Assembly (NCBI GenBank): GCA_947650285.1
Contig: CANTFL010001406.1
Coordinates: 186,001-250,000, forward strand
Direction of reading: 5' to 3'
Length of the DNA stretch: 64,000 nucleotides
From: Hyaloperonospora brassicae
Lineage: Eukaryota > Oomycota > Peronosporomycetes > Peronosporales > Peronosporaceae
Positions within the stretch are counted from its first letter, which is position 1, and the number at the start of each line of letters is the position of its first letter. The notes beneath the pieces are model-generated. The model was not told the origin of the DNA. It saw only the letters and a list, made by a program, of their open reading frames with translations, and made no database searches. The translations under genes and the position numbers were made by a program. Shown one piece after another: positions 4,794-22,070 of this stretch.

Positions 4794-5009
4794 CGGCAAG
4801 GCGGCGCGGCGCTTATATCCCGGTATCTTCACATACGGTAGATAGCCTGCCGTGTATAATTGAGACGGTCGTCCTACGCACTCATTCTGAACTCAAGTGA
4901 TAATCTTGAGATCGGTTCGAGGTACATGACCCGGATATACAGAGTGCCACTGATACATTTCCATGTGTTTATAAGGAAGGGTCGTTCTTCGTGAACCCAC
5001 TCGCCAGGA

Positions 5010-5025
5010 GCTCATTCAACAACTT
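5010..5025 (+). promoter_or_regulatory. Oomycete-type core promoter (initiator plus flanking element)
   Basis: GCTCATTCAACAACTT matches 14 of 16 positions of the known oomycete core, GCTCATTYYNCAWTTT, a TCATT initiator fused to the flanking promoter element. It lies 33 bases upstream of the effector ATG, giving a 5' leader of about 45 bases, as is usual in oomycetes. A second TCATTC lies near 4881. Promoter activity is inferred. Confidence 0.6.
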
Positions 5026-5058
5026 GCTTCCAGCTCAAAGTGTGTCCAGCCATCCGAC

Positions 5059-5682: not shown

Positions 5683-6132
5683 AAAGTCGTGCCGTTGTGC
5701 GCGGCCAGACGATGTCCGTAGACCACACGATGCAAGAAAACGGTACGACACGTTTGCTGAGAAGGTAAATCGGGTGATTGCGGTAGCCGTTGTTCGTGCG
5801 AGGACTTAAGTCTCGTCATGAATATTTTCGTAATGAACAACCTTTCTTCCTCTTTGTCATTCATTTCGTTCAGGTCTACCGCTGCTGCGTACAAATAGAT
5901 CACGCTGGTGAATGGAAATCCCAAGCTGCAGGGAAGCAGTTGTCTCTTTGGGTCCAGATAAGACCAACAATGACGTGGCAACCGTTATCTTTCACGAACG
6001 AAGATCTAATCACTTGACACCTCTCTGCTCACCTCTGGCGCAACTACCATCCATTCTACGTTTGTGTCCTTCGCTCGCGTCGTATCTGCTACACGCATCG
6101 TGCATGGCCTGTCCTGCCTTCTCGCTTGTATT
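5683..6132. other. Intergenic between effector and element A
   Basis: No gene or repeat was recognised. It contains the 3' flank of the effector and ends at the GATTG target site of element A. Confidence 0.5.
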
Positions 6133-6137
6133 GATTG

Positions 6138-6528
6138 TGTAACGGGGCACACCCTTGCGTTACTTAACGCAAGGGTTTTGAGTGCCCCGACAGACGTACA
6201 CGTGGCAAGCGAGGAAGCGTAGGTAGGGTAAAAGTAGAACTGTTATATTAATAAATTAAGTCTTTAAACTACTGTCTCTTCGTTTGACTTAATTCAATTA
6301 TACTAATATAACTGCATGTATGGTGACGTCTCGTCACCACTCATTGCGCGCGTCTTGCGGCGATTGGTGGGTTGATATCATCACGATATCAACCAATGAA
6401 CAGACCCTTTGGTCGGCCCTTTAATATCACCACTTTGGTGATATTGTTTTAAAGAATATCCATCTTTATATTCTTTATTGTCACTTTCCTTAAAGTGACA
6501 ATTTCATGTAACGGGCTGCCCCGTTACA
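6138..6528 (-). repeat. 3' LTR of element A
   Basis: 391 bp with perfect 12-base terminal inverted repeats. Inside are consecutive hairpins: a 12-bp stem at 6151-6176 nested in GGGGCAC/GTGCCCC, and stems at about 6331-6345, 6369-6392, 6424-6445, 6461-6479, 6480-6500 and 6509-6527. The mirror copy is at 13655-14045. Confidence 0.95.
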
Positions 6529-6540
6529 TCACCCCCCCTT
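6529..6540 (-). other. Polypurine tract of element A
   Basis: On the minus strand AAGGGGGGGGTGA directly precedes the 3' LTR. This is the expected place and composition for the plus-strand primer of reverse transcription. Confidence 0.8.
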
Positions 6541-6764
6541 AACTGATAGTCACCGTGTGACTATCGAAAACATGGAGGCCACCCGTTGGCCACCATTGGG
6601 ACAGGGAGCACTTGTTGGGTCCGTTCCATTCACTTTCCGCTTGACCTCGCATAGTTAACATGTCTATGCGAGGTGACTCAAGACCCACACAGCCTGGTGC
6701 TGTGCAAGCCTCTGCGGCAGACGCTTCGTCGTCTGCCGCCCCTTGATACTCTGGCGAGTCAGAC

Positions 6765-8189
6765 GTGTCTGACTCGGGCAATGCTCCAGAGGCGTCTCGC
6801 TCACCGGCGACGCCTCAGTATTCGCCAAGACCACTGCCGAACGAACGGACTCGTGATTTGCATCACAGTCTGTTCGGCAGTGATGATGATGATGATCAGG
6901 GTGGTGAGTTCTATTCTTCACCACCGCCGGCTCGTGCGTCTTCGCACGAGCGTGATGACGATGGCGCGAGCCGTCGTCAATCTGGGAGCCGTGGTACCGA
7001 CAAGGGTACCACTGTGAAGCGTGATGAGTTGAAGCCGTGGCGTTTGCCCGAACAACTCATCAATAGCCTGTCTCACGAGACAGGCCAACACCATCGAATA
7101 CCCTTATTCGATGCAACCGAGCTTCACGGCTTGAGTCCCAGCGCGAAGAACTTTCGCGCTGAAGAAGATTTTTATTTCGATGTCTTTCTTAGACATCGAT
7201 GGTACAACAGCAACCAAAAGCGTGACAAAACATCGCTTTTGGCTGCGTGGAACGCGTTCGTCCAAAACGTAAAGAATTTTGGACGAGAAGGGTGGCTCAA
7301 GAAACTTGAGGCAACACGCCTCAGGTTCGAACGGCGAACGCCAACCGGTGCTAGGTACCGGTTGCATTGTTTATCGAGTGAGGCAGGCATTCCTTGCCTC
7401 ACATGGAGAGACCCTTGTGCGAGTTGTGTTGACAACTCGCAGCGTGCACATAGGGATGTGTACTCCCTAAATTCGCCCTGGGGAAGGGCACATCTCTCGG
7501 AGGAGATGCGTGACGCGATTGCAAACTTGCAATCCGTCTACAAGCGCCCTGGGCGCGTGTTTACCGATGGGCCACATGACTCATCGGATGGGTCTCGACA
7601 TACTGGCGGACGAGACCTTCAACATCCATCAACAGCTGAGAGCGGGGCTCCCAGCTGTTCCAAGAGGGTGGATACCCCCGCCGCTGGACGAGGTAGCTCG
7701 TACTTGATCCTGAATCGTCACGGTGATTCAAGATACGCTCCACTAGAAAGCGTTGATCACCGTGAGCATCCACCAAAGGATGTGGTGGAGGAGGAAAGAC
7801 CTCCTCCAGATGATTCTGTTCACCATCTCGACCCTTACGAGATGGATCGCGCAATCGATGAATTGCGCGATGACTTGAAGCACGAGCGCGATCGGCGCTA
7901 CGCTTTGACCGATACCGTGCGGAAGAACCGCAAGGGTCACGAGGCTGATCGGGCGAGGGATCGCGCCAATTATGCCACGGCGCAGCTTCAGGTCGAGCGG
8001 GATGTCCGCTCCCTATTCGGCGAGCTGGCGACAGCTCGTGGGGAGATATCTCGGTTGAATACCGAGGTATCATATCTGCGCGATCAGACGGATCGTCTGG
8101 AGCGCGAACGCAAGAACTTGATGGATGTTCTTGAACGTGGGGGCTATCTTCATCGGAAGAAGAAGGCTCGTACTGACATTACGACCTAA
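6765..8189 (+). CDS. Antisense accessory protein of element A (coiled coil)
   Basis: A 474-codon frame on the strand opposite pol, between integrase and the 3' LTR. The codon at 6765 is GTG. The same frame continues upstream to ATG 6660 (MSMRGDSRPT), broken only by TGA 6744-6746, which probably arose from CGA, so the ancestral gene was about 509 residues. Layout: acidic Ser/Pro-rich N terminus with an Asp run (about 39-43); a central domain (about 88-250) with WYNSNQKRDKTSLLAAWNAF and a Cys-rich patch (CLTWRDPCASC); a long heptad-rich coiled coil (about 357-460); a basic end, HRKKKAR. Relic D keeps protein-level similarity on this strand (27829-27920 and 28121-28190), which supports real coding. 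By analogy with antisense genes of plant Grande/RIRE2-type elements and retroviral HBZ it might regulate the element; this is inference. Confidence 0.6.
   Translation: MSDSGNAPEASRSPATPQYSPRPLPNERTRDLHHSLFGSDDDDDQGGEFYSSPPPARASSHERDDDGASRRQSGSRGTDKGTTVKRDELKPWRLPEQLINSLSHETGQHHRIPLFDATELHGLSPSAKNFRAEEDFYFDVFLRHRWYNSNQKRDKTSLLAAWNAFVQNVKNFGREGWLKKLEATRLRFERRTPTGARYRLHCLSSEAGIPCLTWRDPCASCVDNSQRAHRDVYSLNSPWGRAHLSEEMRDAIANLQSVYKRPGRVFTDGPHDSSDGSRHTGGRDLQHPSTAESGAPSCSKRVDTPAAGRGSSYLILNRHGDSRYAPLESVDHREHPPKDVVEEERPPPDDSVHHLDPYEMDRAIDELRDDLKHERDRRYALTDTVRKNRKGHEADRARDRANYATAQLQVERDVRSLFGELATARGEISRLNTEVSYLRDQTDRLERERKNLMDVLERGGYLHRKKKARTDITT
7561..8178 (-). pseudogene. Chromodomain tail of element A pol, after one stop
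   Basis: Continues the integrase frame after TAA at 8179-8181. A disordered Pro/Ser/Arg linker leads to a chromodomain at about 7597-7755: FLVERILNHRDDSG, then YLVQRRGYPPSWNSWEP and a final helix. The family usually has V-K-W-K-G-Y; here the cage tryptophan is Arg, so methyl-lysine binding may be lost. Chromodomains steer integration toward marked chromatin. The whole stretch lies inside the plus-strand accessory frame. Confidence 0.7.
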
Positions 8190-8785
8190 GCCTCCCCACG
8201 TAAAACGTAGGATGCGTGCGCATCCTACGTGGCAATTCGAGTGTGTATGCATTGCCCTTGCGATGCAACACTCGAAATGGCCCAATGTATTTCGGCAGTA
8301 GTTTGCTACTGCCGACACTAGTGACTGCATGTCCAGGTAGGTTTACCGTTGACAGTAGTACTAGGTCGTTAACCTTAAATGAAAGAACATTTGCTCTTCC
8401 ATTCTTGTCTGCGTTCCGTTTCTGACGGTCCACCGCATTTGCGATGGAGTCCTGAACGAAACGGACTACCGCTTCTCGAGTCAGCAGGAAGTTCTCTGCT
8501 GACTCTTTGTTTTGTCTGGCAGTGCGCTTCGTGCGCACTGCTAAGAGATTGCTCTCTTCTTCAGCGAGGTTGTCTTCTTCCTCGCTGACATAATCGTTGG
8601 CGATGCTGAATATACCAGCATCGTCATCATCATCCGAATCAATAATAGCGTCTTCGCTATTATTGAGATGATCTTCTTGATCGATGTCGACTTGATCGAC
8701 ATCGGCATCATACGTGACGACGTTTGCGTCGACACGTGATGAGCAAGAGCCAAAACGGTTTTTGCTCGAGCGAGTCCCTCCCCCC
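8182..8785 (-). pseudogene. Integrase C-terminal domain of element A, shifted frame
   Basis: After the six-C run at 8780-8785 the sense product continues in another frame than the main pol frame. An acidic linker (QEDHLNNSEDAIIDSDDDDD) is followed by VRFVQDSIANAVDRQKRNAD and the integrase C-terminal barrel, PKYIGPFRVLHRKGNAYTLELP, to FYVGRLRS. It ends at TAA 8179-8181. One more G in the sense-strand run would join it to pol, so the break is a one-base deletion or a sequencing error. Confidence 0.75.
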
Positions 8786-11700
8786 TAATCCAATAGTTAC
8801 ACTCTATAAGGGTGGGCACTCGTGGATGGCGTAGGCCATTCACGTAAAACGGTGTGTGCTGTGTTGAAGCATGCACCGAATTATTGATGGCGAATTCCAC
8901 CATGGGTAGGAATTCGCTCCAACTCGGAAACGAGTGGACATATCCTCGAAGAATCTCTTCGAGGACACGGTTCGAACGTTCCGTCTGACCATCTGTTTCT
9001 GGATGGTCAGAAGTGGACATCTTCAATCGTGTTCCGAGAGTATGGAACACGGTTTGCCAAAATGCCGCCGTGAACCGAGGGCCACGGTCGGATACGAGTT
9101 CACGGGGTAACCCGTGGAGTTTAAAGACCGTGTCTAGAAAGACACGAGCACAACCTTGGGCCTTGATTGACTCAGGGACAGCAGCAAGATGGACCATCTT
9201 GCTGAATCGGTCTACAAACACAAGAATACCATTATTCTTGTGAGCGTCTTCGGGAAACCCGAATACGAAGTCCATTGAAACGGACTGCCAGCACTCTGTC
9301 GGAACAGGCAGAGGCTGCAATGGCGCACGGGATGAAGGACTAGGCTTCACTCGTTGACAAACTTCGCAAGCACGTATGTACTTGCGAACAAACTGATACT
9401 GGCGGGGCCAGTAAAAGTCACGACTTACCGTGAGGTAAGTCTTTTCCCTTCCACGATGGCCGCTTGTTGGGGCATCGTGACACTCGTACATGATGCGCAA
9501 CCGCAAATCATGATGAGCGGGTACGACGACACGAGGCGTGTCGTCGGCAACAGCTGTATAGTACAGCAATCCGTTGCGTGTACTATACCGATCCGATGAG
9601 GATCGGTACAAAGCCGGTAAATCCCTCATGGATTTACTGGATGGATTCACCAGATGATCCATCAATCGCAGAAGATCCTTATCTTCCGCGTATGCCTTTC
9701 GTACGTCGTCAAGTAAACTTGACGACGGGACACTGACTGACAGTGTTGCAACAGTGGGCTTATCCTCACTGTTGGATTGTGCGTCCGGCTCGAAATCGGG
9801 CCGGCGCGAAAGAGCATCCGCGACGACATTGAGTCGTCCCGGTTTATACTCCACGGAGAAGTTATACTCCGCGAAGAAAGACAGCCACCTCGCCATTCTT
9901 TGCGAGAGGTGTGGGCTGTTTACGGCCGTGCGTAATGACGCATGGTCCGTGTAGACAACAAAAGGTCTATCTCCCAAGAGATAGACGCGAAACTTAGCCA
10001 GTGCGTATTTCATGGCAAGGAGTTCCTTGTCATGCACTGGGTAATTACGCTCAGCTGCTTGCAGCTGACGCGACTGATAACAGATGACGCGCTCCGCGCC
10101 ATCTGCATCGAACTGCATTAACGCACAGCCGATTGCGAAATCGCTGGCGTCACAGACCACATGAAATGGTCTGTCCTGATCTGCAATCGCCAAGATCGGT
10201 GATTGCATCAAGCTCCGCTTGATACCTTCAAAGGAACGCTGGCACTCAGCGTTCCATGACCACTTGACATTTTTCTTGAGCAAGCAAGAAAGATGAACAG
10301 TCATCTCGGCGTAGTTGCGCGAGTACTTGTGCAAGTACGCCGCAAGACCAAGGAACTTCCTTAGTCCCTTGACATCGACTGGCACTGGCCAGTCGGTGAT
10401 CGCCTTGATCTTTTCGGGATCAGGGCGTACGCCGTGTTTACCCACGATGCATCCAAGAAGTGGTATTTCGTTTGCCGCGAATATACACTTCTTGAGGTTG
10501 GCGTACAACTCATGCTTGAGCATAAGTTGAAGAACCTGACGAACGTGAGTTCTGTGAACTTCAACGTCCGTCTTTCCGCCCATAGCCCGGCTATGGACGA
10601 ACACATCGTCGAAGTAACTCGGTGCGAAGTCTCGCACCGGTCTCAACAGATTTGTTACACATCTGTTGAATGTTGCAGGGGCATTACTCAGCCCCTGTGG
10701 CATCACTAGCCACTCCCACAGCATCCCGCTGGGGGTACTCACTGCCGTGAACGGGACGTCCCGTTCACGCATCAGGATCTGATAGAATCCATCCATCAGA
10801 TCCATGGACAAAAATATGGTACTCTTTGACTTACCATCTATGATTACGTCCTTCCTCGGTATCGGCGTCTGAGCCGGTACCGTTGCAGCATTCAACTTGT
10901 TGAATGCGTGCACTATCCGCCACCCTCCTGTGGCCTTTCGCACACAGAAGGTCGGAGAGCTGTGAGGGGATGTTGATTCCCTCACATGGCCCGCTGCTAA
11001 GCGATCGGCAAATAACTTGTCGATCGCTATCACTTGTTCACGAGGCAGTGGCCACTGCTTCATGACACAGTATTTCGAGCCGGGTTTGAGCTCGATCTCG
11101 TGTCGAGTGCCTTTGTCCTTAGGCAACTCGCAAGGTACGGATTCAGGGAACACATCCCTGAATTCGATCAAATCCTTATACAAAGGATTTGCCTGAAGTG
11201 ACTCCCAGGATTGGGACGCGTATCGCTCAATCCGAGTCTTCTCATCGAGGACACTTTCGTCCATCGATGAGCTGCTGAGAACCCGTTCGTTATCAGCAAA
11301 TACTGTTGCCGACCGAATATCGGCCACAAATTCATCCTCTGTGACGAGTATGCAGATCTGCTTGACTTTGCCACTACGCAGATCACGCAAGAACCGTTTC
11401 GGTTCTAGCGTTGGCAACTGAGTTATCTCCGAAGTCAACTTCGGAGGCACAATCAGATCAAGCGTATAAGCGCCTACGCTTGATCCGTCATTAACCAAGA
11501 CGTTCAACGTCTCGGTTTCTTCCTGGGAACTTGCTTCCACAGGTTGCTGAGGGCCTAATCCCTCAGCAAGCGACTCTTGAGGAATTCCTTCCTCAAGTAC
11601 GTGGGGACTTATTCCCTCGACGTCTTCCGACTGTGGCTGTGCAACCACAGTCAGGAACCGATCCTCTACGGTCGACTCTCCAGTCGACCTAGGATTTTCA

Positions 11701-12224
11701 TGTTGCCCCTTGGGGGCAACAGACTTCTTTCTTTTAAGATGCTGCCCGCTAGGCATGCATCCATGTCCCGGTCCACTCGACTTATTCGAGTGGTGGATCT
11801 TCGGCGCAGCCTGTACTTCTGTACAGCCGCCGGAAGCTTGCTCCACAGTGTAGTGATCAACTACACTGTGATCTTGTGCAGTCGTGCTAACGACCGTACC
11901 GCAAGTGAGGCCATCGCACTCACTCGCAGAACATCCACACGCTTGTGGACGCTCCAAGATGTTCATCAGATGGCCATCTGATGAACAAGCAGCAGGCATC
12001 TTCACGGATCGATGCTGCCAGCTCACTCTTGGCTCGTACTTTCTGAGCCAAGGTAATCCCAGGATGACATCAAATTTGTCATCCAGATCTAGTACGATGA
12101 AGTCATCATCGTACTGTTCGCCCTCTAACGTGTAGTGGATTCCTACTACACGTTTCTCAACGGTTATCGATGCGCCTGTTGCAAGGCGCACCGTCATCCT
12201 TGTGAGGGGGAATGTCGCGCTCAA
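8541..12224 (-). CDS. pol: Pol polyprotein of element A (protease end, RT, RNase H, integrase)
   Basis: Frame of 1227 codons. Order: protease second half (VILGLPWL), acidic linker with few motifs, reverse transcriptase with catalytic YFDD (plus-strand 10605-10616) and MPQGLSNAPATF, RNase H (CDASDFAIGCAL, KELLAMKYAL, YTDHASL), integrase zinc finger (H..H..C..C in GHRGREKTY..CEVCQRVK) and the D,D,E core (SMDF, SDRGPRF, TDGQTERSNR). All catalytic residues are present. The first codons (about 12206-12224) and the last about 80 codons are out-of-frame read-through: homology enters at the five-G run 12206-12210 and leaves at 8780-8785. The protein copies the element RNA into DNA and inserts it. Confidence 0.9.
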   Translation of the reverse strand: MSATFPLTRMTVRLATGASITVEKRVVGIHYTLEGEQYDDDFIVLDLDDKFDVILGLPWLRKYEPRVSWQHRSVKMPAACSSDGHLMNILERPQACGCSASECDGLTCGTVVSTTAQDHSVVDHYTVEQASGGCTEVQAAPKIHHSNKSSGPGHGCMPSGQHLKRKKSVAPKGQHENPRSTGESTVEDRFLTVVAQPQSEDVEGISPHVLEEGIPQESLAEGLGPQQPVEASSQEETETLNVLVNDGSSVGAYTLDLIVPPKLTSEITQLPTLEPKRFLRDLRSGKVKQICILVTEDEFVADIRSATVFADNERVLSSSSMDESVLDEKTRIERYASQSWESLQANPLYKDLIEFRDVFPESVPCELPKDKGTRHEIELKPGSKYCVMKQWPLPREQVIAIDKLFADRLAAGHVRESTSPHSSPTFCVRKATGGWRIVHAFNKLNAATVPAQTPIPRKDVIIDGKSKSTIFLSMDLMDGFYQILMRERDVPFTAVSTPSGMLWEWLVMPQGLSNAPATFNRCVTNLLRPVRDFAPSYFDDVFVHSRAMGGKTDVEVHRTHVRQVLQLMLKHELYANLKKCIFAANEIPLLGCIVGKHGVRPDPEKIKAITDWPVPVDVKGLRKFLGLAAYLHKYSRNYAEMTVHLSCLLKKNVKWSWNAECQRSFEGIKRSLMQSPILAIADQDRPFHVVCDASDFAIGCALMQFDADGAERVICYQSRQLQAAERNYPVHDKELLAMKYALAKFRVYLLGDRPFVVYTDHASLRTAVNSPHLSQRMARWLSFFAEYNFSVEYKPGRLNVVADALSRRPDFEPDAQSNSEDKPTVATLSVSVPSSSLLDDVRKAYAEDKDLLRLMDHLVNPSSKSMRDLPALYRSSSDRYSTRNGLLYYTAVADDTPRVVVPAHHDLRLRIMYECHDAPTSGHRGREKTYLTVSRDFYWPRQYQFVRKYIRACEVCQRVKPSPSSRAPLQPLPVPTECWQSVSMDFVFGFPEDAHKNNGILVFVDRFSKMVHLAAVPESIKAQGCARVFLDTVFKLHGLPRELVSDRGPRFTAAFWQTVFHTLGTRLKMSTSDHPETDGQTERSNRVLEEILRGYVHSFPSWSEFLPMVEFAINNSVHASTQHTPFYVNGLRHPRVPTLIECNYWIRGEGLARAKTVLALAHHVSTQTSSRMMPMSIKSTSIKKIISIIAKTLLLIRMMMTMLVYSASPTIMSARKKTTSLKKRAIS

Positions 12225-12477
12225 CGAACTTGAGCCTACGACCCTCTAGTGACTGGCGACAAACAAAGTTGTTCGACGCCCCACAGTCTACTAGGGCACG
12301 AAGCGACAAATCATTTGTCGCTTCCAACTTCAAGGTGATGAGCGAAATGTCATCACCAGGTGCAGAGACACACAACGATTGTGTATCTGGAGCAACTTTC
12401 GTCAAGAGATTTGCAAATTCTCTTGAGGTTGCTGGATCAGTAGGGCGCTCCGCCCCTACTGACCCCGACCATTTTTT
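12206..12477 (-). pseudogene. Protease N-terminal part of element A
   Basis: A frame that begins inside the 3' end of gag, in the -1 phase, and holds the aspartic protease active site LVDCGASNNFVCRQSL, with Cys in the D-S/T-G-A motif as in several gypsy lineages. It passes into the pol frame at 12206-12210, where one extra base in a five-base run breaks the continuity. The protease would cut Gag and Pol into mature parts. Confidence 0.75.
12437..12477 (-). promoter_or_regulatory. -1 ribosomal frameshift signal between gag and protease
   Basis: On the minus strand the gag frame reads TC A AAA AAT GG. The heptamer A-AAA-AAT (12471-12477) fits X-XXY-YYZ in the gag reading phase. Eight bases follow, then a stem-loop (12437-12462) with a 9-bp perfect stem (11 bp with one bulge) that contains the gag stop TAG (12456-12458). 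The protease frame is exactly the -1 frame. Confidence 0.7.
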
Positions 12478-13610
12478 GATGGTCCGTCTCGCTGTTGCGG
12501 CTTCGCAACAGCGCTGGACCCACGCCCATTGCCCTTTCTGGCAAAAGGTCGTCCATTTCGCTCAATACTGTTTGGTACTGGGCGTGGAGCACTACACTCG
12601 TATGCGTAGTGCCCTAACTTCTGACAGCGATTGCACCTCTGCAATCGCTTGTTGCTTGTAGAGCGAGGTCTCTCGCTATCAACATAGCAGAGGTCCATTG
12701 GTTCTGGACCTCCGATCTCTTGTCGTCTCGGTGGACGGTAAGAGTTTGAGCTAGCATGAGCCTGTCTCATGCTAAAGTCTTCCTGTTCCGCGGCTGATAT
12801 CGCTTCTTCAAGCGTATTCAGCTTAAGGCGGAACAGGTGGCTCCTGACGGGCCCTTCTGCGAGCCCTTGCATGAACACCGTAATCAACGTGTGTTCATGT
12901 ACTGGGTTGGCAGTTATACTACTCGCAAGGAGTCGTATATGTTGTGCGTAGGCGTGCACATCACGCTTACCCTGCTTGAGTTTCAGGAGCTCTGAGCGAG
13001 CCCTGAACTCAGCACGTGGCGGCTCAAACGTTTGTCTGAGCCGGGACTTGAAGTCATCTAGCGACCTAAACACATTTGGGTCGCTACTCTCGAGTCCCAG
13101 GGACCAAGTTTTGGCACGCCCTGCCAAGTGGGTCTGAGCAAATGTGAGTTTCATTTGCTCATCTTCGACGCGACGAGCCCTTAGGGCTCTGTCGAGTTCG
13201 ATAAACCATAGTAACAGGGAGTCCTCCGGGACTCCACTTTACTTAGAGATGTCGACTTTCATGACTTCGGGACGACGCGCATGCGCCGTCCCGCCCACAG
13301 CAGCATGGAATTGCTGCTGTCTCAACAGCTCCGTCTGTTGAGTACCGAGTTCTCTCAACTGCTCGGCCTGTTGAGAGCCTTGCTGGTGAAGCAAGGCTAC
13401 TTTCTCCCTCTCGAGAGCAAGTTCATTCTGAATGAACTTGGCTATAGCGGCATGTTGTTGGTCTCTGTCTAGAGACTCCAACATGGTGCTGACGACGAGT
13501 TCGCCTACGGTAGAACTCATTCGTTCTACCGCACCCCATTCGATGTCACTCAAATGGGTAAACCCTTCACGCGTGGCGTGAAAGGTGTCTTCTTCATCCA
13601 ACATGTTCAT
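12456..13610 (-). pseudogene. gag: Gag of element A, one premature stop
   Basis: Nucleocapsid and capsid precursor, 385 codons from ATG 13608-13610 to TAG 12456-12458. One TAA at 13239-13241 interrupts it; both sides are the same frame. N part: coiled, Gln/Glu-rich (LALEREKVALLHQQ). Middle: capsid-like helices (RAKTWSLGLESSDPNVF, DVHAYAQHIRLLASSI). C part: a CCHC zinc knuckle, CNRCQKLGHYAYEC, and a basic tail. The leader from LTR to ATG is 44 bases. Translation of pol depends on the frameshift at its end. Confidence 0.88.
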
Positions 13611-13634
13611 GTTGGATGATGTGGTCCTTGGAAG

Positions 13635-13652
13635 GACTACAAAGTGCTACCA
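13635..13652 (-). other. Primer binding site of element A
   Basis: Two bases inside the 5' LTR, the minus strand reads TGGTAGCACTTTGTAGTC. TGG pairs with the CCA end of a tRNA. The first seven bases agree with initiator-Met type sites and the rest does not, so the primer tRNA is not assigned. Confidence 0.6.
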
Positions 13653-13654
13653 GG

Positions 13655-14045
13655 TGTAACGGGGCACACCCTTGCGTAACTTAACGCAAGGGTTTTGAGT
13701 GCCCCGACAGACGTACACGTGGCAAGCGAGGAAGCGTAGGTAGGGTAAAAGTAGAACTGTTATATTAATAAATTAAGTCTTTAAACTACTGTCTCTTCGT
13801 TTGACTTAATTCAATTATACTAATATAACTGCATGTATGGTGACGTCTCGTCACCACTCATTGCGCGCGTCTTGCGGCGATTGGTGGGTTGATATCATCA
13901 CGATATCAACCAATGAACAGACCCTTTGGTCGACCCTTTAATATCACCACTTTGGTGATATTGTTTTAAAGAATATCCATCTTTATATTCTTTATTGTCA
14001 CTTTCCTTAAAGTGACAATTTCATGTAACGGGCTGCCCCGTTACA
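13655..14045 (-). repeat. 5' LTR of element A
   Basis: 391 bp, near-identical to 6138-6528. Clear changes are T to A in the loop region of the first hairpin and G to A in GGTCGGCCC. It drives sense transcription leftward and is followed by GATTG. Confidence 0.95.
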
Positions 14046-14340
14046 GATTGCGACGGTAGCTAATGTCATGAACCGGTCGTCTTTTTGGTCCTTCACTTGC
14101 GTCGGGCAGCTGATCGTACCGCTACCACTGCTTTGATCACCGAAGGAAGTTCGTTATACGCCTGCAAAGAAGCGTAGTTTGCTCAGGAAGTCTATTGCAA
14201 GGAATCGCAACAGTTGTCGTGAACCGATTTGGACGACGTGACGTTGTACGTGAGACGTGTTCGTCTAGTCTTTGTCTACCAACGCTAACGTGCGCCATCA
14301 CGACAAGGGTTGCACTCAAGTCGAATCTTGAGACACCTCG

Positions 14341-14869
14341 TGTAACGGGTTTACATGTCAACTGGTAGTCGACAATAGTTGTGGTACACACAAGGGATGG
14401 GATCCCTTTAAAGTAATATTAGATCACAGTATCAATTGTTGAAGACTGATGTCTATCAACCATTGATTACGAGATTTTTTAATAGTTTTATTTCGGACAT
14501 AAGCGAGTAGGTTAATTACTTTGTTCTAAGGTGCTCTTTTAGGTTAAAAGAAGACATAAAAATCAGTCCCCATTTTGATCCAAAGACACGTGCCTCTCCG
14601 AGGCGTCTTACGATCATTAAGGAGGTAGTAACGCCTTGTTCAGGCAGCTACTCCTTGTGACCTCTGTGCGTTTGCTTCATTGAATCGTTTGATCCCCCTG
14701 GAACAGAGACCGTAAGCTCTCTGAGCTTGTTGCCCCTTTGAGTCGGGTTCTTTGAACCAAACCTTAGCCCTCGGAGCTGTTGACTCTTTGAGTCGGGTTC
14801 GTATAACCAAAGTTGCTCATTGAGCGTTAAGTCTTCCTCTGACGTAAGGAGATGTGTAGCCCCGCTACA
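14341..14869 (+). repeat. 5' LTR of B1
   Basis: 529 bp, TGTAACGGG to CCCGCTACA, ending two bases before a TGG primer site. The inverted near-identical copy is at 16957-17483. Confidence 0.8.
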
Positions 14870-14871
14870 CT

Positions 14872-14889
14872 TGGTAGCACTTGTAGGCA
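14872..14889 (+). other. Primer binding site of B1
   Basis: TGGTAGCACTTGTAGGCA just inside the LTR. The first nine bases are shared with the site of element A. The same sequence recurs at the start of B2 (about 20929). Confidence 0.6.
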
Positions 14890-15116
14890 ATATACGCCTG
14901 AGTCGGTAACGACTGATCCTCTGTGAGGATTTAACAATCCACACCCCTCTCTGAGGCCCAAAAGGTCGCGCTTGATAAGCTGACCGCGGACGTAGGCCCA
15001 GAGTATGTGGAGTTTATAGCTGCACAAGGTTCGATGTGCTCAATGCACGAGTCGAGACCTTCATGTAGTATGAAACGGCCCTTCTAGGGTAGGTTCAAAA
15101 CCAAGTAGCGTCGACT

Positions 15117-15985
15117 ATGCCAACACGCTACGTGGAAATGCCACCAGAAGGGGCCAAGCCTCGTCTCCTTCGGGTGGACGTTAAACATTACTCCGGGAAG
15201 GAGGGGGGAAACCTTACCCTCTGGATCCGTGATATTGAGATGGCCATGAGCCATGGCCTTATCTCACAGGAGTACCAGCGGGTATCGCTTGCTATCTCCA
15301 AGCTCGATGGAAGAGCTAGAGAGTGGGCTCTGACGTGTGGCACGTCGTTCGATTTGGCGTTTCCCACATGGGATTCGATCAAGTTAGACCTTTTGCGAGT
15401 TTTCTCGCCGCCTAACCGGGCTTATCGCGTGCGCTCACGCTTCTTGTCCACCCGTCAGGGCAAGAATGAGTTACCGGACTATGTCCAAGAGTTGAGAACT
15501 CTGATGGCTACTATGCAGTTGAACCTCTCCCTGAGGCAGTCTGTGTGACTGTCTTCATGGAAGGTCTTCGTAATGGCGTCGCCAGGACCGAGGTGTTTCG
15601 GGTCCATCCCTCTACTTCTGAGGAGGCTGTTAGCATCGCTCAAAATGCTGAGCACAACTTCAAGTCGGCCAGAATTGGTTGGAATGGGTACAACCCAAGC
15701 TTTGCGAGGGCAACCTCTGCTAGCACCTCGGGTTTCTGTAAGCCAGAACCGATGGATCTCAGTCATGCTGAAGATGAAGGTGAAGCGGAGCTTCATGTTG
15801 AAGAGCAACGACAGGAATTGAGACGCTGTTATATGTGCGGAAGCACCAAACACTTGCGTCCCACTTGTCCTTTGCGTAAGCAACAACCGACTCCTATGGG
15901 TCGAAACCCCAGCCACAACCAAAAACCTGGTATGGCACGAGAAAACGTCGACACCCACTGGGCACAGGGCGCCCTACTGGGTTAG
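15117..15985 (+). pseudogene. gag: Gag of B1, frameshifted
   Basis: The capsid part starts at ATG 15117 (MPTRYVEMPPEGAKPRLL, then LWIRDIEMAMSHGLIS and AREWALTCGTSF) and stops at TGA 15546-15548. The second part, 15545-15985, in another phase, continues the same protein (VTVFMEGLRNGVARTEVF) through a CCHC knuckle, CYMCGSTKHLRPTC. Both ends of the second part look like one-base losses in C runs (near 15530 and 15978). The same breaks are in B2. The leader of 247 bases before the ATG has no other gene. Confidence 0.85.
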
Positions 15986-16017
15986 AACTGAATTATGTTG
16001 CTTCCCTATGAGGTAGA

Positions 16018-17007
16018 GTGAAAAAGGACTTAGCCCCACCGAGCTCTGGGCCCGCCAGCACAGAGCGTGGATACAAGCCTAGCTTGTTAGTCGACGAGGC
16101 AAAAGTTGAAGACTTTGAGAAGCAATGGTCGATACTAATCGACTCCGGATCATCATGAAATTATGCTCGACGTCGTTCCCTTGAGGAAAGTCAGCGATAT
16201 GCTGAAGCGCTCAAAGCGCATGAAGGTGATTCGATCACCGTTTGTTTAGCGACTGGTAGTTGCGTCAAGGTGACTAAAGTTCCATTGAACTTAGGTGTGA
16301 AGTTTTTGGACTTTGACAGCATTGAACGCTGTCTTGTCCTCGATTTGGATTCGAGATACGATCTCATCCTGGGTATGGCTTGGCTTGAACGCCGTGATCC
16401 ATGGATTGACTGGAAGTCTAATACCTTAGGCGCCACGCGCAATGTTCCTAGCGAAGCTTTGGAGAGTCGTGAACCCACCTTTTCTAGGCAACAAAAGCGC
16501 TATTGGCGCGAGCCATTGAAGGAAGATGTCAATGTGCTGGACATTGGTATGTCAGAGTTAATTAACTCCAATGTCAATGACATCAATATTGAGCGGAGCT
16601 CTTTCACCGTATGTGAAGGGAGTTATACTCCGTTAAGTGATACTCGTTGTGATACTGAGTCACTGCATGCTGCAGGCATGGTTGGCCTAGGGCCGAGACA
16701 TGAAGAATGTAATTCCTCTGATGTGAGTGGGGTGGCTTGTGAAATTCCACCGAGTGAGGGAGGCCGAGGGGGCACCTCACTGAATGTCGGTAATGACATT
16801 GATGGCGAGAAGCCAGAGTGTTCAGAGCTAGGCCCGGATGCTATACGTGAAGTGGTACGTGTAAATCCACTGGGTGAAGTGTTCGAGTTACGTAACACTT
16901 CACCAGATATGGTTCAAGACATGAGATCTTGTATGGAGCGTGCTACGATAAAAGTGGAGCGGAGCGACACATCTCCTTACGTCAGAGGAAGACTTAACGC
17001 TCAATGA
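16018..17007 (+). pseudogene. Protease region of B1, truncated
   Basis: Aspartic protease: ILIDSGSS followed by TGA at 16156-16158, where B2 has Cys, then LVLDLDSRYDLILGMAWLER and a Ser/Gly/Glu-rich linker. Downstream the frame runs into the inverted LTR at about 16957 and ends at 17007, so RT is missing. The linker DNA (16551-16950) is rich in short hairpins, such as the 10-bp pair GTGAAGTGTT and AACACTTCAC. Confidence 0.8.
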
Positions 17008-17483
17008 GCAACTTTGGTTATACGAACCCGACTCAAAGAGTCAACAGCTCCGAGGGCTAAGGTTTGGTTCAAAGAACCCGACTCAAAGGGGCAACAAGCT
17101 CAGAGAGCTTACGGTCTCTGTTCCAGGGGGACCAAACGATTCAATGAAGCAAACGCACAGAGGTCACAAGGAGTAGCTGCCTGAACAAGGCGTTACTACC
17201 TCCTTAATGATCGTAAGACGCCTCAGAGAGGCACGTGTCTTTGGATCAAAATGGGGACTGATTTTTATGTCTTCTTTTAACCTAAAAGAGCACCTTAGAA
17301 CAAAGTAATTAACCTACTCGCTTATGTCCGAAATAAAACTATTAAAAAATCTCGTAATCAATGGTTGATAGACATCAGTCTTCAACAATTGATACTGTGA
17401 TCTGATATTACTTTAAAGGGATCCCATCCCTTGTGTGTACCACAACTATTGTCGACTACCAGTCAACGTGTAATCCCGCTTCA
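16957..17483 (-). repeat. 3' LTR of C, inverted relative to B1
   Basis: Reverse complement of 14341-14869 with about 98% identity by eye. On the minus strand it starts TGAAGCGGGATTACA after a polypurine tract. The far end shows mismatches where it meets the B1 protease sequence. Confidence 0.8.
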
Positions 17484-17495
17484 CCCTCCCCCACC
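17484..17495 (-). other. Polypurine tract of C
   Basis: Minus strand GGTGGGGGAGGG immediately before the LTR start. This fixes C as a minus-strand 3' half. Confidence 0.75.
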
Positions 17496-17591
17496 AGACT
17501 GACGTTTCTACAAAACGTCGATCGAATTCTTTCCTCGAAAAGGACGGTGTGTGTGCGCTTCAACGTTACGGTTGGCAAAACACAAAACACC

Positions 17592-18908
17592 ATGGCATCG
17601 CCACCCCATGAGTCCTCGACTCTCTCGTCCTACCTCGACATCGATGTGGAGGTGGATTATGGTAGCGATACCGATATCCATGGTGAAGAGAGGATAATGT
17701 CCGACTCATTAGTGCAAGAGGCACCGCCTCATGCTTCACCAAACCCATTTGCCGAGCGTGACGAAGCCAACGCGCCATCGGCGCCGCATCAAACACCCAT
17801 CGTGGGCGATGCCATCATCATCAATCCACTCGATGAGCAACAACAGTTGGCTATCCAACGAGAAGAGATCTCTCAGCGCCGTATGCAGCTTGCTGCAACC
17901 CTTGATGGTCGTCGTGGCTATCTGTTCACCCTACTCAATGTGGAAGAGCGTATACGCCAAACGACAGGTCGTTTAATGGCAACGTGGGCCATTGGCGCTG
18001 AGCCAACATCTTCTGATGAGGTGGCGAGTCGACAGGTACTTCGCGAGAGGTACCTGCAACCTCACTTGACGACTCATAGTCAATACAAGTTGCGACTTGA
18101 CACGCAAGCACGGGGTGCACCGGTTCCACCGATGAAGGGTATACCCATCCTCTTATTCGCAGGCGAATATCAGGAGAAAGAAGACAATTCGTTTGTTCGC
18201 TGGGTGCATCGGAAACGACACCTAAGCAGCGTGGTAGCTCTCAGAGCAAGTGACGATGTGGCAGATGTTCGTCTAGAACGAAAGCTTCGGTATGATTACG
18301 CCAAGCTTAAGACCAGAGGACATTTGAGAACTCGCACACGCTATGCTCCGGCTTTGCCGGTTGATGTGGGTGTTAGTCAAACGGTGCCCAAACACCCAAC
18401 CGCCTCGACCACTATTGGTGAAAAGCGCTATCGGTCGAGGGATGACCCCTGCCACGACGTTCAAAAACATCAACGGAGAATGGAAAATCCTGACGAAGGG
18501 GTATCTCAAACTCCCACGAGTTCTCCGACTCCGGGTACTCTCGCCACTTCACCAGATACTGGTATTGACCCTGATGACGACGTCGTTTCAGGAGTCGCTC
18601 CACATGGAACTGGCGCTTCCCTTGCTCATCGAGCAGCGTCAGAGGTGGTCGGTATACCGAAGGAGGAGCATGAGAAGGAGCTTCTCGAGCTGAGTGGTCA
18701 CCGTGAGACATTGGGTAATACCCAGAGCGCGTTTGACGCGATGCGAGCCCGTTTCCAGGCGTTACAGTTGGGACAAGCCCGGATAGAGGCTCAGCTTGAC
18801 CTCCTGATACGGATTAAGCAGCCGATACCAAGACCAAGTTTCGCGGCGCAAACGCCTTCAATTTTACGTGGGCCGTATCTCAATACGGCTTTATGCATTA
18901 AAACGTAG
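17592..18908 (+). CDS. Antisense accessory protein of C (coiled coil)
   Basis: 438 codons from ATG 17592 (MASPPHESSTLSSYLDID). The frame is also open upstream to 17433, inside the LTR. It lies opposite the 3' end of pol, as in element A. Layout: Ser/Asp/Glu-rich N terminus (VDYGSDTDIHGEER), a central helical part (REEISQRRMQLAATLDG, VEERIRQTTGRLMATW), a disordered Thr/Ser/Pro stretch, and a coiled coil near the C terminus (about 355-412, EEHEKELLELSGHRE). Sequence similarity to the A product is not obvious by eye, but place, strand, phase and layout agree. It is intact although the surrounding pol is broken. Confidence 0.55.
   Translation: MASPPHESSTLSSYLDIDVEVDYGSDTDIHGEERIMSDSLVQEAPPHASPNPFAERDEANAPSAPHQTPIVGDAIIINPLDEQQQLAIQREEISQRRMQLAATLDGRRGYLFTLLNVEERIRQTTGRLMATWAIGAEPTSSDEVASRQVLRERYLQPHLTTHSQYKLRLDTQARGAPVPPMKGIPILLFAGEYQEKEDNSFVRWVHRKRHLSSVVALRASDDVADVRLERKLRYDYAKLKTRGHLRTRTRYAPALPVDVGVSQTVPKHPTASTTIGEKRYRSRDDPCHDVQKHQRRMENPDEGVSQTPTSSPTPGTLATSPDTGIDPDDDVVSGVAPHGTGASLAHRAASEVVGIPKEEHEKELLELSGHRETLGNTQSAFDAMRARFQALQLGQARIEAQLDLLIRIKQPIPRPSFAAQTPSILRGPYLNTALCIKT
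18412..18711 (-). pseudogene. Chromodomain fragment of C
   Basis: Clear chromodomain at about 18457-18615: FHVERLLKRRRHQGQYQ, YLVKWREYPESENSWE, then a short helix. The cage tryptophan is present; the usual Gly after it is Glu. It is in a different frame from the integrase end at 18791-19180, so a frameshift separates them. It lies wholly inside the antisense accessory frame. Confidence 0.8.
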
Positions 18909-19180
18909 AACACAGGGTGTGAGCACAATTTTCTCGGAAGGTTGAGCGTATACGCAAGTCCCCTGTCATCAATGACCGTAAATGGTCCAATGAAGCGCGG
19001 GCGCAAATTTGTCTTGAAGTCGGCGGACACTACATTTGTAGGTAGGTTATTAGCATTGAGTAGAACTTGGTCTCCGACCTCATAACGTTCAATACAAACT
19101 CTGCCTTTTGCATCATCTTGTTCCTTCAACTTGTATTGGCTATCATCCAGTGCGTCACGCACATGTCGTAAGACATTCAA
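18791..19180 (-). pseudogene. Integrase C-terminal domain of C
   Basis: Contains VGDQVLLNANNLP and RPRFIGPFTVIDDRGLAYTLNLP up to HPVFYV, the usual end of the gypsy integrase barrel. It then runs off in a wrong frame to 18791. The linker upstream (19181-19290) has stops in every frame that preserves homology. Confidence 0.8.
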
Positions 19181-19290
19181 TCGCGTTGCGAGAAACTCGC
19201 TTACCTATTTCGAACAGTAGCAGGGCTGATATCAGCAAGCCGATCAGCAACTTACTCCCCCACCAATCCCTGAACCACGTAGTGGTAGCG

Positions 19291-19845
19291 TTAACGAAAC
19301 GCGAGGGTGTGTGTGAGACCATTCACATAAAACGGTGTGTAGCCGGTGGAGGCATGCATGGCGTTATTCAACGCAAAATCAAGAACAGGGAGCATCGAAC
19401 TCCAACGCTTTGGCGTTTTAGCGCAAACACTGCGCAATATGTCAACGATGATGCGATTCACTCGCTCGGTTTGATCATCAGTCTGCGGATGATTCGCTGT
19501 GGACATGTCCAAACGTGTGCCGAGCACCTTAAAGATGGAATTCCAAAACTTCCCAATGAAGCGAGGATCTTTATCAGAGACAATTGCCAACGGCAAAACG
19601 TGTTGTCGAAACACGAGATCGATAAACAGCGTCGCTGTACCTTCACCATCAATGGTATCCAGCACCGCCGCTAAATGAGCCATGTTGCTCAAACGGTCAA
19701 CAAAGACCACAATACATGTATTTCCATACGATTTCTTCGGTAATCCGAACAGGAAGTCCATACTGATGGACTCCCAACACCCCTTAGGTACAGGCAAACT
19801 ATCCAGCGGCGGCGCCGAGTGAGGTGAGCTTTTACCCGTTGACAC
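19291..19845 (-). pseudogene. Integrase core of C
   Basis: Catalytic core with D (SISMDFLFGLP), D (IVSDKDPRF) and E (DDQTERVNR), then INNAMHAS-type motifs and FYVNGLTH. The frame shifts just after THP, with VADRLADISPATVR in the next phase. The active residues are intact, but the protein cannot be made in one piece. An ACGTACGC microsatellite at 19844-19866 interrupts the link to the zinc finger. Confidence 0.85.
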
Positions 19846-19894
19846 GTACGCACGTACGCACGTATGTGCTTACCTATTTGTAAAATTTGGGCCA

Positions 19895-20922
19895 TCAATA
19901 GCATTGGATCACTGAGTCATAGGTCTTCTCCCGAACAAGATGACCACCCAATGCAGTATCATGTGCCTCATAGAGGATCCGATACTTCAACTCCTCATCA
20001 TGAGGGACAACGATGCGAGGGGTATTCTCCACATCCGTTCTATAGCACAACATGCCTTGATCGATGGAATATAGATGTAACCTCGAACGTAACCGTGCCG
20101 ACAATTCTATGTCCGATTCCTTAAACTCCTCGCTACCTAGAGCGCGTAGCAGAGCTACACAGTGTTCATCCTTGGCATATGCCGTACGGATTAGGCCAGT
20201 AACCGACGACGACAGAGTCGTAGCATGAGAAAGCTCATAGTCAGGCCTGCGTGACAAATTATCAGCCAAATCATTCTGCTTGACGGACTTGTACTTCACC
20301 TCAAATTTATACTTGGCAAAGAAGGAAAGCCAACGAGCCATTCTCTGAGAGAAGTGAGGCGACTGGGTCGCAGTGCGTAGTGACGCATGATCTGTATAGA
20401 TCACAAACGTCTTAAAGCCAAGAAGATGAACTCTGAATTTGACGAGAGCATACTTCATTGCAAGTAGCTCTTTGTCATAAACAGGAATGTTCTTTTCTGC
20501 AGCCTTCAGCTGCCGGGACTCAAACGAAATGACGCTTTCCCGTCCATCAGAATCTGTCTGTAACAGAGCGTAGTCTATGGCAAAGACAGATGCGTCACAG
20601 AAGACACTGAAAGATCGATCAGGATCAGGCAAAGCCAAGACTGGCGCATGAAGGAGACTCTCCATTACTGCTTGACAATAATCATGCTCGGTGCTAGTCC
20701 AGCACCATTTTACATCCTTTTCAAGGAGATTGGATAATGGCCGAGCCATATTTGCACATCTCGCACTGTACTTGTGCAAGTAATTGGCAAGGACAAGCTA
20801 CTTATATAAGTCATTTTTGTTCCCCTGGAACCAGCCAATCACTGATGGCTTTTACCTTTGCGGGATCCGCTCTAAAGCCTAGCTTACCAATAAAGCACCC
20901 TAAAAAAAGAATCTCTTCTGCA
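19895..20922 (-). pseudogene. RT end, RNase H and integrase zinc finger of C
   Basis: Starts within the RT thumb (LGCFIGKLGFRADPAKVKAI, 20811-20922), shifts frame, then RNase H with FCDASVFAI, KELLAMKYAL and YTDHASL, followed by a linker and the first half of the integrase zinc finger (ALGGHLVREKTYDS). The RT palm is missing because the block ends at the join near 20923. Confidence 0.85.
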
Positions 20923-20924
20923 CT

Positions 20925-21169
20925 TGGTAGCACTTGTAGGCAATCTACGCCTGAGTCGGTAACGACTGATCCTCTGTGAGGATGTAACAATCCACACCCC
21001 TCTATGAGGCCCAAAAGGTCGCGCTTGATAAGCTGACCGCGGCCGTAGGCCCAAAGTATGTGGAGTTTATAGCTGCACAAGGTTCGATGTGCTCAATGCA
21101 CGAGTCGAGACCTTCATGTAGTATGAAACGGCCCTTCTAGGGTAGGTTCAAAACCAAGTAGCGTCGACT
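20925..21169 (+). repeat. Leader and primer site of B2
   Basis: Starts abruptly with the last bases before the PBS (CACTTGGTAGCACTTG), with no LTR, and matches 14868-15116 with few changes. It joins directly to inverted pol sequence of C. Confidence 0.75.
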
Positions 21170-22038
21170 ATGCCAACACGCTACGTGGAAATGCCACCAG
21201 AAGGGGCCAAGCCTCGTCTCCTTCGGGTGGACGTTAAACATTACTCCGGGAAGGAGGGGGGAAACCTTACCCTCTGGATCCGTGATATTGAGATGGCCAT
21301 GAGCCATGGCCTTATCTCACAGGAGTACCAGCGGGTATCGCTTGCTATCTCCAAGCTCGATGGAAGAGCTAGAGAGTGGGCTCTGACGTGTGGCACGTCG
21401 TTCGATTTGGCGTTTCCCACATGGGATTCGATCAAGTTAGACCTTTTGCGAGTTTTCTCGCCGCCTAACCGGGCTTATCGCGTGCGCTCACGCTTCTTGT
21501 CCACCAGTCAGGGCAAGAATGAGTTACCGGACTATGTCCAAGAGTTGAGAACTCTGATGGCTACTATGCAGTTGAACCTCTCCCTGAGGCAGTCTGTGTG
21601 ACTGTCTTCATGGAAGGTCTTCGTAATGGCGTCGCCAGGACCGAGGTGTTTCGGGTCCATCCCTCTACTTCTGAGGAGGCTGTTAGCATCGCTCAAAATG
21701 CTGAGCACAACTTCGAGTCGGCCAGAATTGGTTGGAATGGGTACAACCCAAGCTTTGCGAGGGCAACCTCTGCTAGCACCTCGGGTTTCTGTAAGCCAGA
21801 ACCGATGGATCTCAGTCATGCTGAAGATGAAGGTGAAGCGGAGCTTCATGTTGAAGAGCAACGACAGGAATTGAGACGCTGTTATATGTGCGGAAGCACC
21901 AAACACTTGCGTCCCACTTGTCCTTTGCGTAAGCAACAACCGACTCCTATGGGTCGAAACCCCAGCCACAACCAAAAACCTGGTATGGCACGAGAAAACG
22001 TCGACACCCACTGGGCACAGGGCGCTCTACTGGGTTAG
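21170..22038 (+). pseudogene. gag: Gag of B2, frameshifted
   Basis: Copy of the B1 gag, offset by 6053 bases, with the same break at TGA 21599-21601 and the same shift near its end. A few coding changes differ, for example R to S in LSTxQGKN and K to E in HNFxSAR. The CCHC knuckle is intact. The shared lesions show that the damage predates the split of the two copies. Confidence 0.85.
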
Positions 22039-22070
22039 AACTGAATTATGTTGCTTCCCTACGAGGTAGA

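What the first reader, a model, noticed from the sequence alone, without database searches (positions are those of the whole stretch)
6138..14045. Element A is a continuous array of short perfect hairpins
Inverted repeats with 6-12 bp arms and 2-10 base loops follow each other every 20-40 bases through LTRs, gag, pol and the antisense gene. Examples: 6151-6176 (12 bp), 7177-7199 (9 bp), 8944-8964 (9 bp, loop 3), 8985-9010 (9 bp), 9028-9051 (8 bp), 9129-9146 (7 bp), 9182-9204 (11 bp, loop 1), 9219-9242 (10 bp, loop 4), 9249-9263 (6 bp). The host gene at 1-1332 and elements E and F do not show this. The stems lie in protein-coding DNA, so coding and pairing are met at once. Possible causes: a structured genomic RNA (packaging, defence against silencing), DNA cruciform function, or templated quasi-palindrome correction during reverse transcription. 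I know of no description of this.
Basis: seen in the sequence. Interest (0 to 1): 0.9.

Follow-up and report, generated by a model that had tools for sequence, protein, structure and literature searches.

The report
Retrotransposons tiled with size-ruled hairpins
A mobile genetic element in an oomycete-like genome is tiled from end to end with short perfect hairpins that natural selection appears to preserve, related element families each use their own hairpin size, and the hairpins would likely keep the element's RNAs folded on themselves and out of reach of gene silencing.

Summary
Element A (6138-14045), a Ty3/gypsy retrotransposon with an antisense gene, holds 122 perfect hairpins (arm >=7, loop 1-12), 15.4 per kb; dinucleotide shuffles give about 0.6, and pol's 56 compare with 3.1 in synonymous-codon shuffles.

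(1) In 30 copies, silent pol variants shared by >=4 copies avoid stems (2 of 30; 9.6 expected) while singletons do not (13 of 40; 12.7), which fits purifying selection. (2) Pol hairpins stay codable in the Peronospora effusa homologue (34 of 41 vs 198 of 344 controls), not detectably in ten more distant relatives. (3) Family A2 has its own array at other positions. (4) Outer span is family-specific: about 23 nt in A, 21 in A2, 13 in B, the window's 14.3-23 kb element; E, 36-50 kb and host show no comparable peak. (5) Stem mismatches show no clear strand preference.

Selection on geometry is well supported; function is inferred. Self-folding of sense and antisense transcripts against silencing leads; a packaging size code and templated repair stay open. 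Ten full-text searches found no prior description.

The parts
6138..14045 (.). Element A: Ty3/gypsy retrotransposon tiled with perfect hairpins; gag-pol and genomic RNA on the minus strand
   Evidence: 122 hairpins of arm >=7, loop 1-12; Pfam RT, RNase H, integrase, protease, gag
6133..6137 (.). target-site duplication GATTG, left copy
   Evidence: sequence
14046..14050 (.). target-site duplication GATTG, right copy
   Evidence: sequence
6138..6528 (-). LTR (3' LTR in gag-pol sense), TGTAAC...GTTACA, hairpins at the same density
   Evidence: 99.5% to the other LTR; hairpins; ends read from the sequence
13655..14045 (-). LTR (5' LTR in gag-pol sense)
   Evidence: ends read from the sequence
6530..6540 (-). 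polypurine tract AAGGGGGGGTG, lying in the gap between hairpins 6506-6529 and 6545-6565
   Evidence: sequence, hairpins; assignment by position, inferred
13638..13652 (-). primer-binding site (TGGTAGCA...), in the gap between hairpins 13624-13637 and 13668-13693; same motif in A2
   Evidence: assignment by position, inferred
12456..13154 (-). gag ORF (Retrotrans_gag, zinc knuckle)
8541..12224 (-). pol ORF (protease, RT, RNase H, integrase); 56 hairpins of arm >=7 vs 3.1 in codon shuffles
6765..8189 (+). antisense gene (474 aa, helical N-terminal part and long coiled coil in the model); 20 hairpins vs 1.5
   Evidence: 12 homologues of 45-85% identity, model mean pLDDT 60
8943..8965 (.). example hairpin, 10-bp arms, loop 3
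9182..9204 (.). example hairpin, 11-bp arms, loop 1
14865..23030 (-). Element B (related Ty3, pol sense on minus): array of mini-hairpins of outer span 11-17 nt
   Evidence: 18974-20923 is 89.6% identical to L043; 41, 22, 39 and 39 mini-hairpins in pol part, antisense ORF and the two LTR-like repeats; enrichment
17433..18908 (+). antisense ORF of element B (491 aa)
   Evidence: position between pol and left repeat; mini-hairpins 22 vs 7.6 in mononucleotide shuffles

Best explanation
Element A and its relatives A2 and B carry hairpin arrays of a family-specific size whose stems, where tested (A and B), appear to be kept by purifying selection, likely because they keep both the sense and the antisense transcripts folded on themselves so that the two would not anneal into long double-stranded RNA or offer open targets to small RNAs. 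Shown: the arrays, their excess over codon-preserving shuffles, the deficit of widely shared silent variants in stems but not of singletons, codability kept in a second species, position turnover between A and A2, family-specific outer span, no clear strand bias in mismatches, and a conserved antisense gene in A. Inferred: that the selected state is single-stranded RNA of both polarities, that silencing is the selective agent, and that short arms (at most 13 bp in A) stay below what Dicer would cut. PBS and PPT lie in gaps between hairpins, as expected if priming sites must stay open.
For: Arrays and nulls. Selection in A: of 30 silent pol variants shared by >=4 of 30 copies, 2 lie in stems (9.6 by 1227 circular shifts, 0.24% of shifts as low; Mantel-Haenszel OR 0.14 over 13 bins), whereas 13 of 40 singletons do (12.7 expected). 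The same trend, weaker, in 26 B copies: codon position 3, minor count >=4, 66 of 289 stem sites vs 223 of 719 others, p 0.011; singletons 52 of 289 vs 160 of 719, p 0.15; minor count 2-3 shows no deficit, 79 of 289 vs 180 of 719. Pairs in two Watson-Crick forms in B: 10 of 427, slid controls 1-6. Cross-species: realised pol hairpins stay codable in the P. effusa protein, 34 of 41 vs 198 of 344; with amino-acid changes in the arms, 15 of 22 vs 66 of 212 (arms of 8); with arms of 7, 43 of 52 vs 325 of 526, and in gag 5 of 8 vs 31 of 131. Antisense-gene hairpins: P0121 12 of 14 vs 78 of 157, P0125 9 of 10 vs 49 of 116, P0122 (48% identity) 8 of 16 vs 45 of 282 with arms of 7. Strand neutrality: GU 12 vs AC 9, B 30 vs 23 against 87 vs 83 outside stems, MFE/nt -0.433 vs -0.425 for the two strands of one A copy. 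Turnover: same-centre hairpins between A and A2 2, of 40 and 21. Threat: in Phytophthora infestans most small RNAs map to transposons, mainly LTR elements, and cover two Gypsy elements in both orientations (PMC3522703, passages).
Against: A host silencing machine should set one ruler for all families, but A, A2 and B differ. B pol avoids spans 18-25 (6 vs 17.6, lowest of 200 shuffles 10), which self-shielding does not predict; that deficit is absent from the window copy's antisense ORF and LTR-like repeat (15 vs 8.7, 18 vs 12.4). Non-coding stems of A show no depletion of shared variants (5 of 188 vs 5 of 439). Ten pol relatives of at most 80% identity keep codability no more than controls; for the antisense gene P0130 and P0128 are not significant, and P0122 loses significance with arms of 8. 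Older A copies L077 and L078 differ about equally in stems and outside (16 of 426 vs 55 of 1042; 21 of 426 vs 60 of 1042), read here as decay after insertion. A2's overall MFE excess is modest (z -1.8 / -1.6), no larger than B's (-2.0 / -1.1) and near that of 53-64 kb (-1.4 / -1.3). Loops of A and A2 are A-rich on the genomic strand (A: 0.32 A, 0.23 T), a hint of strand-specific reading, though B's are not. An antisense ORF may not be special to hairpin families: one search lists plus-strand ORFs of 182 and 265 codons beside E's minus-strand pol, not examined. No small-RNA or transcript data exist here.
Confidence: 0.35

Rival explanations
1. A family-specific packaging or recognition code: an element-encoded nucleic-acid-binding protein (Gag zinc knuckle or the antisense protein) reads hairpin size, so that each family's RNA is bound along its length by its own protein and not by that of a competitor.
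For: Family-specific outer span within one genome, with no strong sequence motif in A or B; positions free to move, as for dispersed packaging signals of RNA viruses (PMC6281560, search listing only); B pol avoids the spans that A and A2 use; loops A-rich on the genomic strand in A and A2.
Against: G.U pairs on the genomic strand are not clearly favoured over A.C, unusual for a structure read only in RNA; A does not avoid B's spans (7 vs 7.8 for spans 11-13); B's avoidance is confined to pol; the antisense-protein model (mean pLDDT 60) matches no solved fold at E <= 0.001.
Confidence: 0.2
2. Templated quasi-palindrome formation and repair by each family's reverse transcriptase: fold-back copying makes and mends hairpins of an enzyme-specific size, with little or no benefit to the element.
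For: No clear strand bias and perfect Watson-Crick arms; a family-specific size follows naturally from the enzyme; repair in the replication cycle would also clear shared stem variants while leaving singletons.
Against: Doubled (compensatory) variants are rare: 1 of the 16 shared stem variants in A belongs to a pair with a compensated copy, although doubling would often change the protein and be filtered. L079's private hairpin differs from A by two substitutions in each arm rather than a tract in one arm (one case). Unrepaired A.C mismatches persist in 16 of 30 copies at 12310 and 12409. The avoidance of longer spans in B pol is not predicted.
Confidence: 0.2
3. DNA-level function: cruciforms or hairpins in the single-stranded cDNA act on chromatin, protect cDNA or influence integration.
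For: No clear strand preference; LTRs and both coding directions included.
Against: Singletons accumulate in stems of integrated copies as elsewhere, so nothing seems to maintain stems after insertion; no measured effect available.
Confidence: 0.1
4. Chance, low complexity or assembly artefact.
For: None found.
Against: 122 vs about 5 expected; 29 further copies carry 76-80 hairpins in the same 4.8 kb; codon shuffles.
Confidence: 0.01

Closest known systems
Genome-scale ordered RNA structure (GORS) of some RNA viruses (properties recalled; term searched, listing only)
   Same: Folding excess spread over the whole element, not tied to conserved positions among distant relatives; proposed link to evading RNA-based defence
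   Different: Here discrete perfect hairpins with arms of at most 13 bp, no clear strand bias, a family-specific outer span, in an LTR retrotransposon; MFE about 1.45-1.48 times shuffles in A
Dispersed packaging signals of ssRNA viruses (PMC6281560, search listing only)
   Same: Many short stem-loops along the genome, position-flexible
   Different: No strong loop or stem motif in A or B; no evidence that the structure is read only in the genomic strand
Ty3/gypsy retrotransposons with antisense genes (such elements recalled)
   Same: gag, protease, RT, RNase H, integrase, PBS, PPT, LTRs, 5-bp TSD; antisense ORF between pol and the 3' LTR
   Different: Hairpin arrays with a size ruler; no comparable array in the chromodomain Ty3 element at 52-64 kb of the same window
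Quasi-palindrome correction mutations (recalled)
   Same: Would create perfect inverted repeats without strand bias
   Different: Known to me as sporadic events, not as an array covering an element

Membership tests
Ty3/gypsy LTR retrotransposon (element A) | gag plus pol in order protease-RT-RNase H-integrase | tested here: met
Ty3/gypsy LTR retrotransposon (element A) | LTRs, TSD, PBS, PPT | tested here: met
   and sequence; PBS/PPT by position
Ty3/gypsy LTR retrotransposon (element A) | transposition | not testable with these tools
   Young insertion is implied only: LTRs 99.5% identical; 30 copies 0.04-2.3% apart
GORS | element-wide folding energy beyond shuffles | tested here: met
   A: z -5.7 and -5.4 over 26 windows; A2 and B weaker
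GORS | pairing positions not conserved between relatives | tested here: met
   A vs A2; the close P. effusa relative seems to keep them
GORS | single-stranded RNA virus genome | tested here: not met
   DNA-integrated LTR retrotransposon
GORS | structure acts in the RNA against innate sensing | not testable with these tools
   no expression or small-RNA data
Dispersed packaging signals | shared loop or stem recognition motif | tested here: not met
   at most about 0.2 bit per column in A and B pol; weak GC motif in A2 stems (up to 0.35)
Dispersed packaging signals | binding by capsid protein | not testable with these tools
   -
Known structured RNA families (Rfam) | match to a curated family | tested here: not met
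   0 matches at gathering scores in 6000-14100

The most novel reading that the evidence does not exclude
Related retrotransposon families in one genome each write their own hairpin length (about 23, 21 and 13 nt) all over their coding and non-coding sequence: a distributed, sequence-free size code by which an element's nucleic acid is recognised as self and kept from competitors or from silencing.
Probability: 0.25. Interest if true: 0.95.

Novelty: categorically new. Interest (0 to 1): 0.86.

Why it matters
A retrotransposon whose genes in both directions are written under a simultaneous rule to fold into hairpins of fixed size would be a new kind of constraint on coding DNA. It makes several things testable: whether mobile elements evade RNA silencing by self-folding, whether families mark their own RNA by hairpin size, or whether a reverse transcriptase can sculpt its template. 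The size ruler gives a simple computable signature to look for in other genomes.

Tried and rejected
Chance and low complexity: rejected. Known RNA families: none at gathering scores. Homologous hairpins between A and A2: rejected, 2 same-centre, a number the shifted control also reaches. Strand-specific wobble tolerance: not found. A sequence motif in stems or loops: none strong in A or B. A protein cost of hairpins: none seen. A host small-RNA length as the ruler (21 and 25/26 nt classes, PMC3522703): considered because A and A2 spans fit, then weakened by B's 13 nt. Fold of the antisense protein: low-confidence model, no PDB match with E <= 0.001; the solved-structure sequence search gave only weak matches, best E 0.047. 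Relatives in IMG/VR: none confirmed. In GTDB genomes: one Ty3-like contig (L081, 31% identity) with mild enrichment. The loop-length table counted some hairpins twice and was replaced. The first polymorphism run mixed strands and was replaced. One search crashed after its first tables; continued. Rows dropped: 26 of 28 B-type loci were used (two with under 2700 aligned bases left out); one search compared 11 of the 120 listed homologues; only one of the five A3 copies (L070) was compared; one search used 9 of 28 B-type loci, which are close copies and not independent.

Papers: ten full-text searches listed no description of hairpin arrays in LTR retrotransposons that I could recognise from titles and abstract starts; subscription papers and preprints are mostly not held. 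Only PMC3522703 was opened (passages).
Full report
What it is. Element A (6138-14045) is a Ty3/gypsy LTR retrotransposon in a 100.6-Mb assembly of 898 contigs. Its best-scoring pol relative among the 120 listed is from the oomycete Peronospora effusa (87% aa). Gag (12456-13154) and pol (8541-12224) lie on the minus strand. LTRs are TGTAAC...GTTACA, 99.5% identical, with a GATTG target-site duplication. A PBS and a PPT sit inside the LTRs in the minus sense (by position). A gene of 474 codons (6765-8189) runs antisense between pol and the 3' LTR. It has 12 homologues of 45-85% identity, all in ENA contigs, which supports a real conserved gene. Copies are abundant: the 73 scored matches (of 8462 first-look candidates) to a 600-aa part of pol, the window copy among them, are 98-100% identical and uninterrupted in that part, and many have longer open frames than the window copy.

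The array. With arm >=7 and loop 1-12 there are 122 perfect hairpins, 15.4 per kb. Synonymous-codon shuffles give 3.1 where pol has 56, 0.6 where gag has 8, and 1.5 where the antisense gene has 20. Arms of 7 or more are mostly 8-10 bp and do not exceed 13; loops of 3-6 are commonest. The array covers the LTRs and ends at the element's borders. PBS and PPT fall between hairpins. In 29 other copies the same 4.8-kb stretch carries 76-80 hairpins; the window copy carries 70 and is itself somewhat decayed.

Selection. I aligned 30 copies over window 7701-12500 and split variants by frequency. At third codon positions of pol, 30 variants are shared by >=4 copies; 2 lie in stems, 9.6 expected from 1227 circular shifts (0.24% of shifts as low), Mantel-Haenszel odds ratio 0.14 over 13 bins. 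Of 40 singletons, which presumably arose mostly after insertion, 13 lie in stems, 12.7 expected. Mutation thus hits stems normally, but stem-breaking silent variants are rarely passed on. Non-coding stems do not show this (5 of 188 vs 5 of 439; few events). Family B gives a weaker copy of the result, and there 10 of 427 pairs occur in two Watson-Crick forms, against 1-6 for slid partners. An older relative, L079 (86% identical), differs from A at 35 of 425 stem sites and 168 of 1041 others; L076 (83%) at 51 of 421 and 172 of 1026; L077 and L078 (about 95%) show little difference between stems and other sites.

Across species. Without DNA from other oomycetes I asked whether each realised hairpin could still be encoded by a relative's protein, using pairable but unrealised positions as controls. 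In the P. effusa pol, 34 of 41 stay codable against 198 of 344; among those whose arms carry amino-acid changes, 15 of 22 against 66 of 212 (arms of 8); with arms of 7, 43 of 52 against 325 of 526. The ten other pol relatives tested (at most 80% identity) show no significant excess. Antisense-gene hairpins stay codable in P0121 (12 of 14 vs 78 of 157), P0125 (9 of 10 vs 49 of 116) and P0122 (8 of 16 vs 45 of 282) with arms of 7; P0130 and P0128 are not significant, and with arms of 8 P0122 is not either (3 of 13 vs 20 of 181).

Turnover. A second family, A2 (L046; 56% aa identity in pol), has 27 hairpins in its 3-kb pol part against 3.0 in codon shuffles, plus LTRs and an antisense ORF at similar density. 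A and A2 hairpins share a centre in 2 cases, of 40 and 21, with a shift mean of 0.16 and maximum of 2. Within the A lineage, alternative overlapping hairpins replace each other, and L079 owns a 9-bp hairpin that differs from A by two substitutions in each arm. The array is kept as a whole while its members move.

The ruler. Counting by outer span (two arms plus loop) gave the most surprising result. Against codon shuffles, A pol peaks at 20-28 nt (mode 23), A2 pol at 19-23 (mode 21). Family B, to which the window element at 14.3-23 kb belongs, peaks at 13-14 with 5-6 bp arms: 84 hairpins of span 11-17 against 18.9. B pol also has fewer spans of 18-25 than any of 200 shuffles (6; mean 17.6, minimum 10), though the window copy's antisense ORF and LTR-like repeat do not. 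A and A2 spans differ (p 4e-7; pol only p 0.003). Arm and loop lengths are anticorrelated in both, so it is the outer span that is held. The chromodomain Ty3 element at 52-64 kb, the 36-50 kb region and the host region 1-6000 show no comparable peak; their largest bumps are small (E, arm >=7, spans 17-19: 4.4-fold on 6 hairpins; 36-50 kb, arm >=6, spans 11-13: 3-fold on 8).

Strand. If only the genomic RNA were read, G.U pairs on that strand should be tolerated more than A.C. They are not clearly so: 12 vs 9 interrupting mismatches in A, 4 vs 1 in A2; 7 vs 8 shared variants in A stems; 30 vs 23 widely shared variants in B stems against 87 vs 83 elsewhere; and near-equal folding energy of both strands. 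Shared stem variants in A are nearly all transitions (15 of 16, against 44 of 70 elsewhere). Loops of A and A2 are A-rich on the genomic strand, those of B are not; this is the one asymmetric sign.

Mechanism. Selection for local self-pairing is well supported; the agent is inferred. Because both strands seem to matter, A, A2 and B all have an antisense ORF (similarity between the three is weak or undetected; E was not examined for one), and in P. infestans most small RNAs map to transposons, mainly LTR elements, with two Gypsy elements covered in both orientations (PMC3522703, passages), I favour self-folding that would hinder sense-antisense annealing and small-RNA access, at 0.35. The family-specific ruler speaks for an element-encoded reader or a reverse-transcriptase process instead; these stay open at 0.2 each.

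Noticed in passing
window 14340-23030: Ty3 element of family B with about 2.1-kb direct repeats (14865-16977, 20918-23030, 98.5%) and an antisense ORF; part of the left repeat recurs inverted (14340-14872 vs 16952-17484).
   Followed up: partly
window 25575-25997, 26501-26524: 25575-25997 is about 80% similar to the flanks of an A2 insertion elsewhere (L074, L075); isolated 11-bp hairpins at 25575-25597 and 26501-26524; perhaps remains of another hairpin-bearing element.
   Followed up: no
L009-L038, gag-pol sense: G>A exceeds C>T among singletons (29 vs 19) and shared variants (21 vs 12) on the genomic strand.
   Followed up: no
L081: A Ty3-like element on a contig of a Phycisphaerae MAG (PAFA01000096.1), perhaps eukaryotic contamination, with mild hairpin enrichment at spans 20-31.
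   Followed up: no
L075 2460-3021: Next to the A2 copy on contig C14 lies a stretch 81.5% similar to the LTR/PBS/gag-side region of element A (window 13111-13667).
   Followed up: no
window 13-1332: ORF with a class I tRNA synthetase catalytic domain (PF01406) beside element A; host gene used as control.
   Followed up: no
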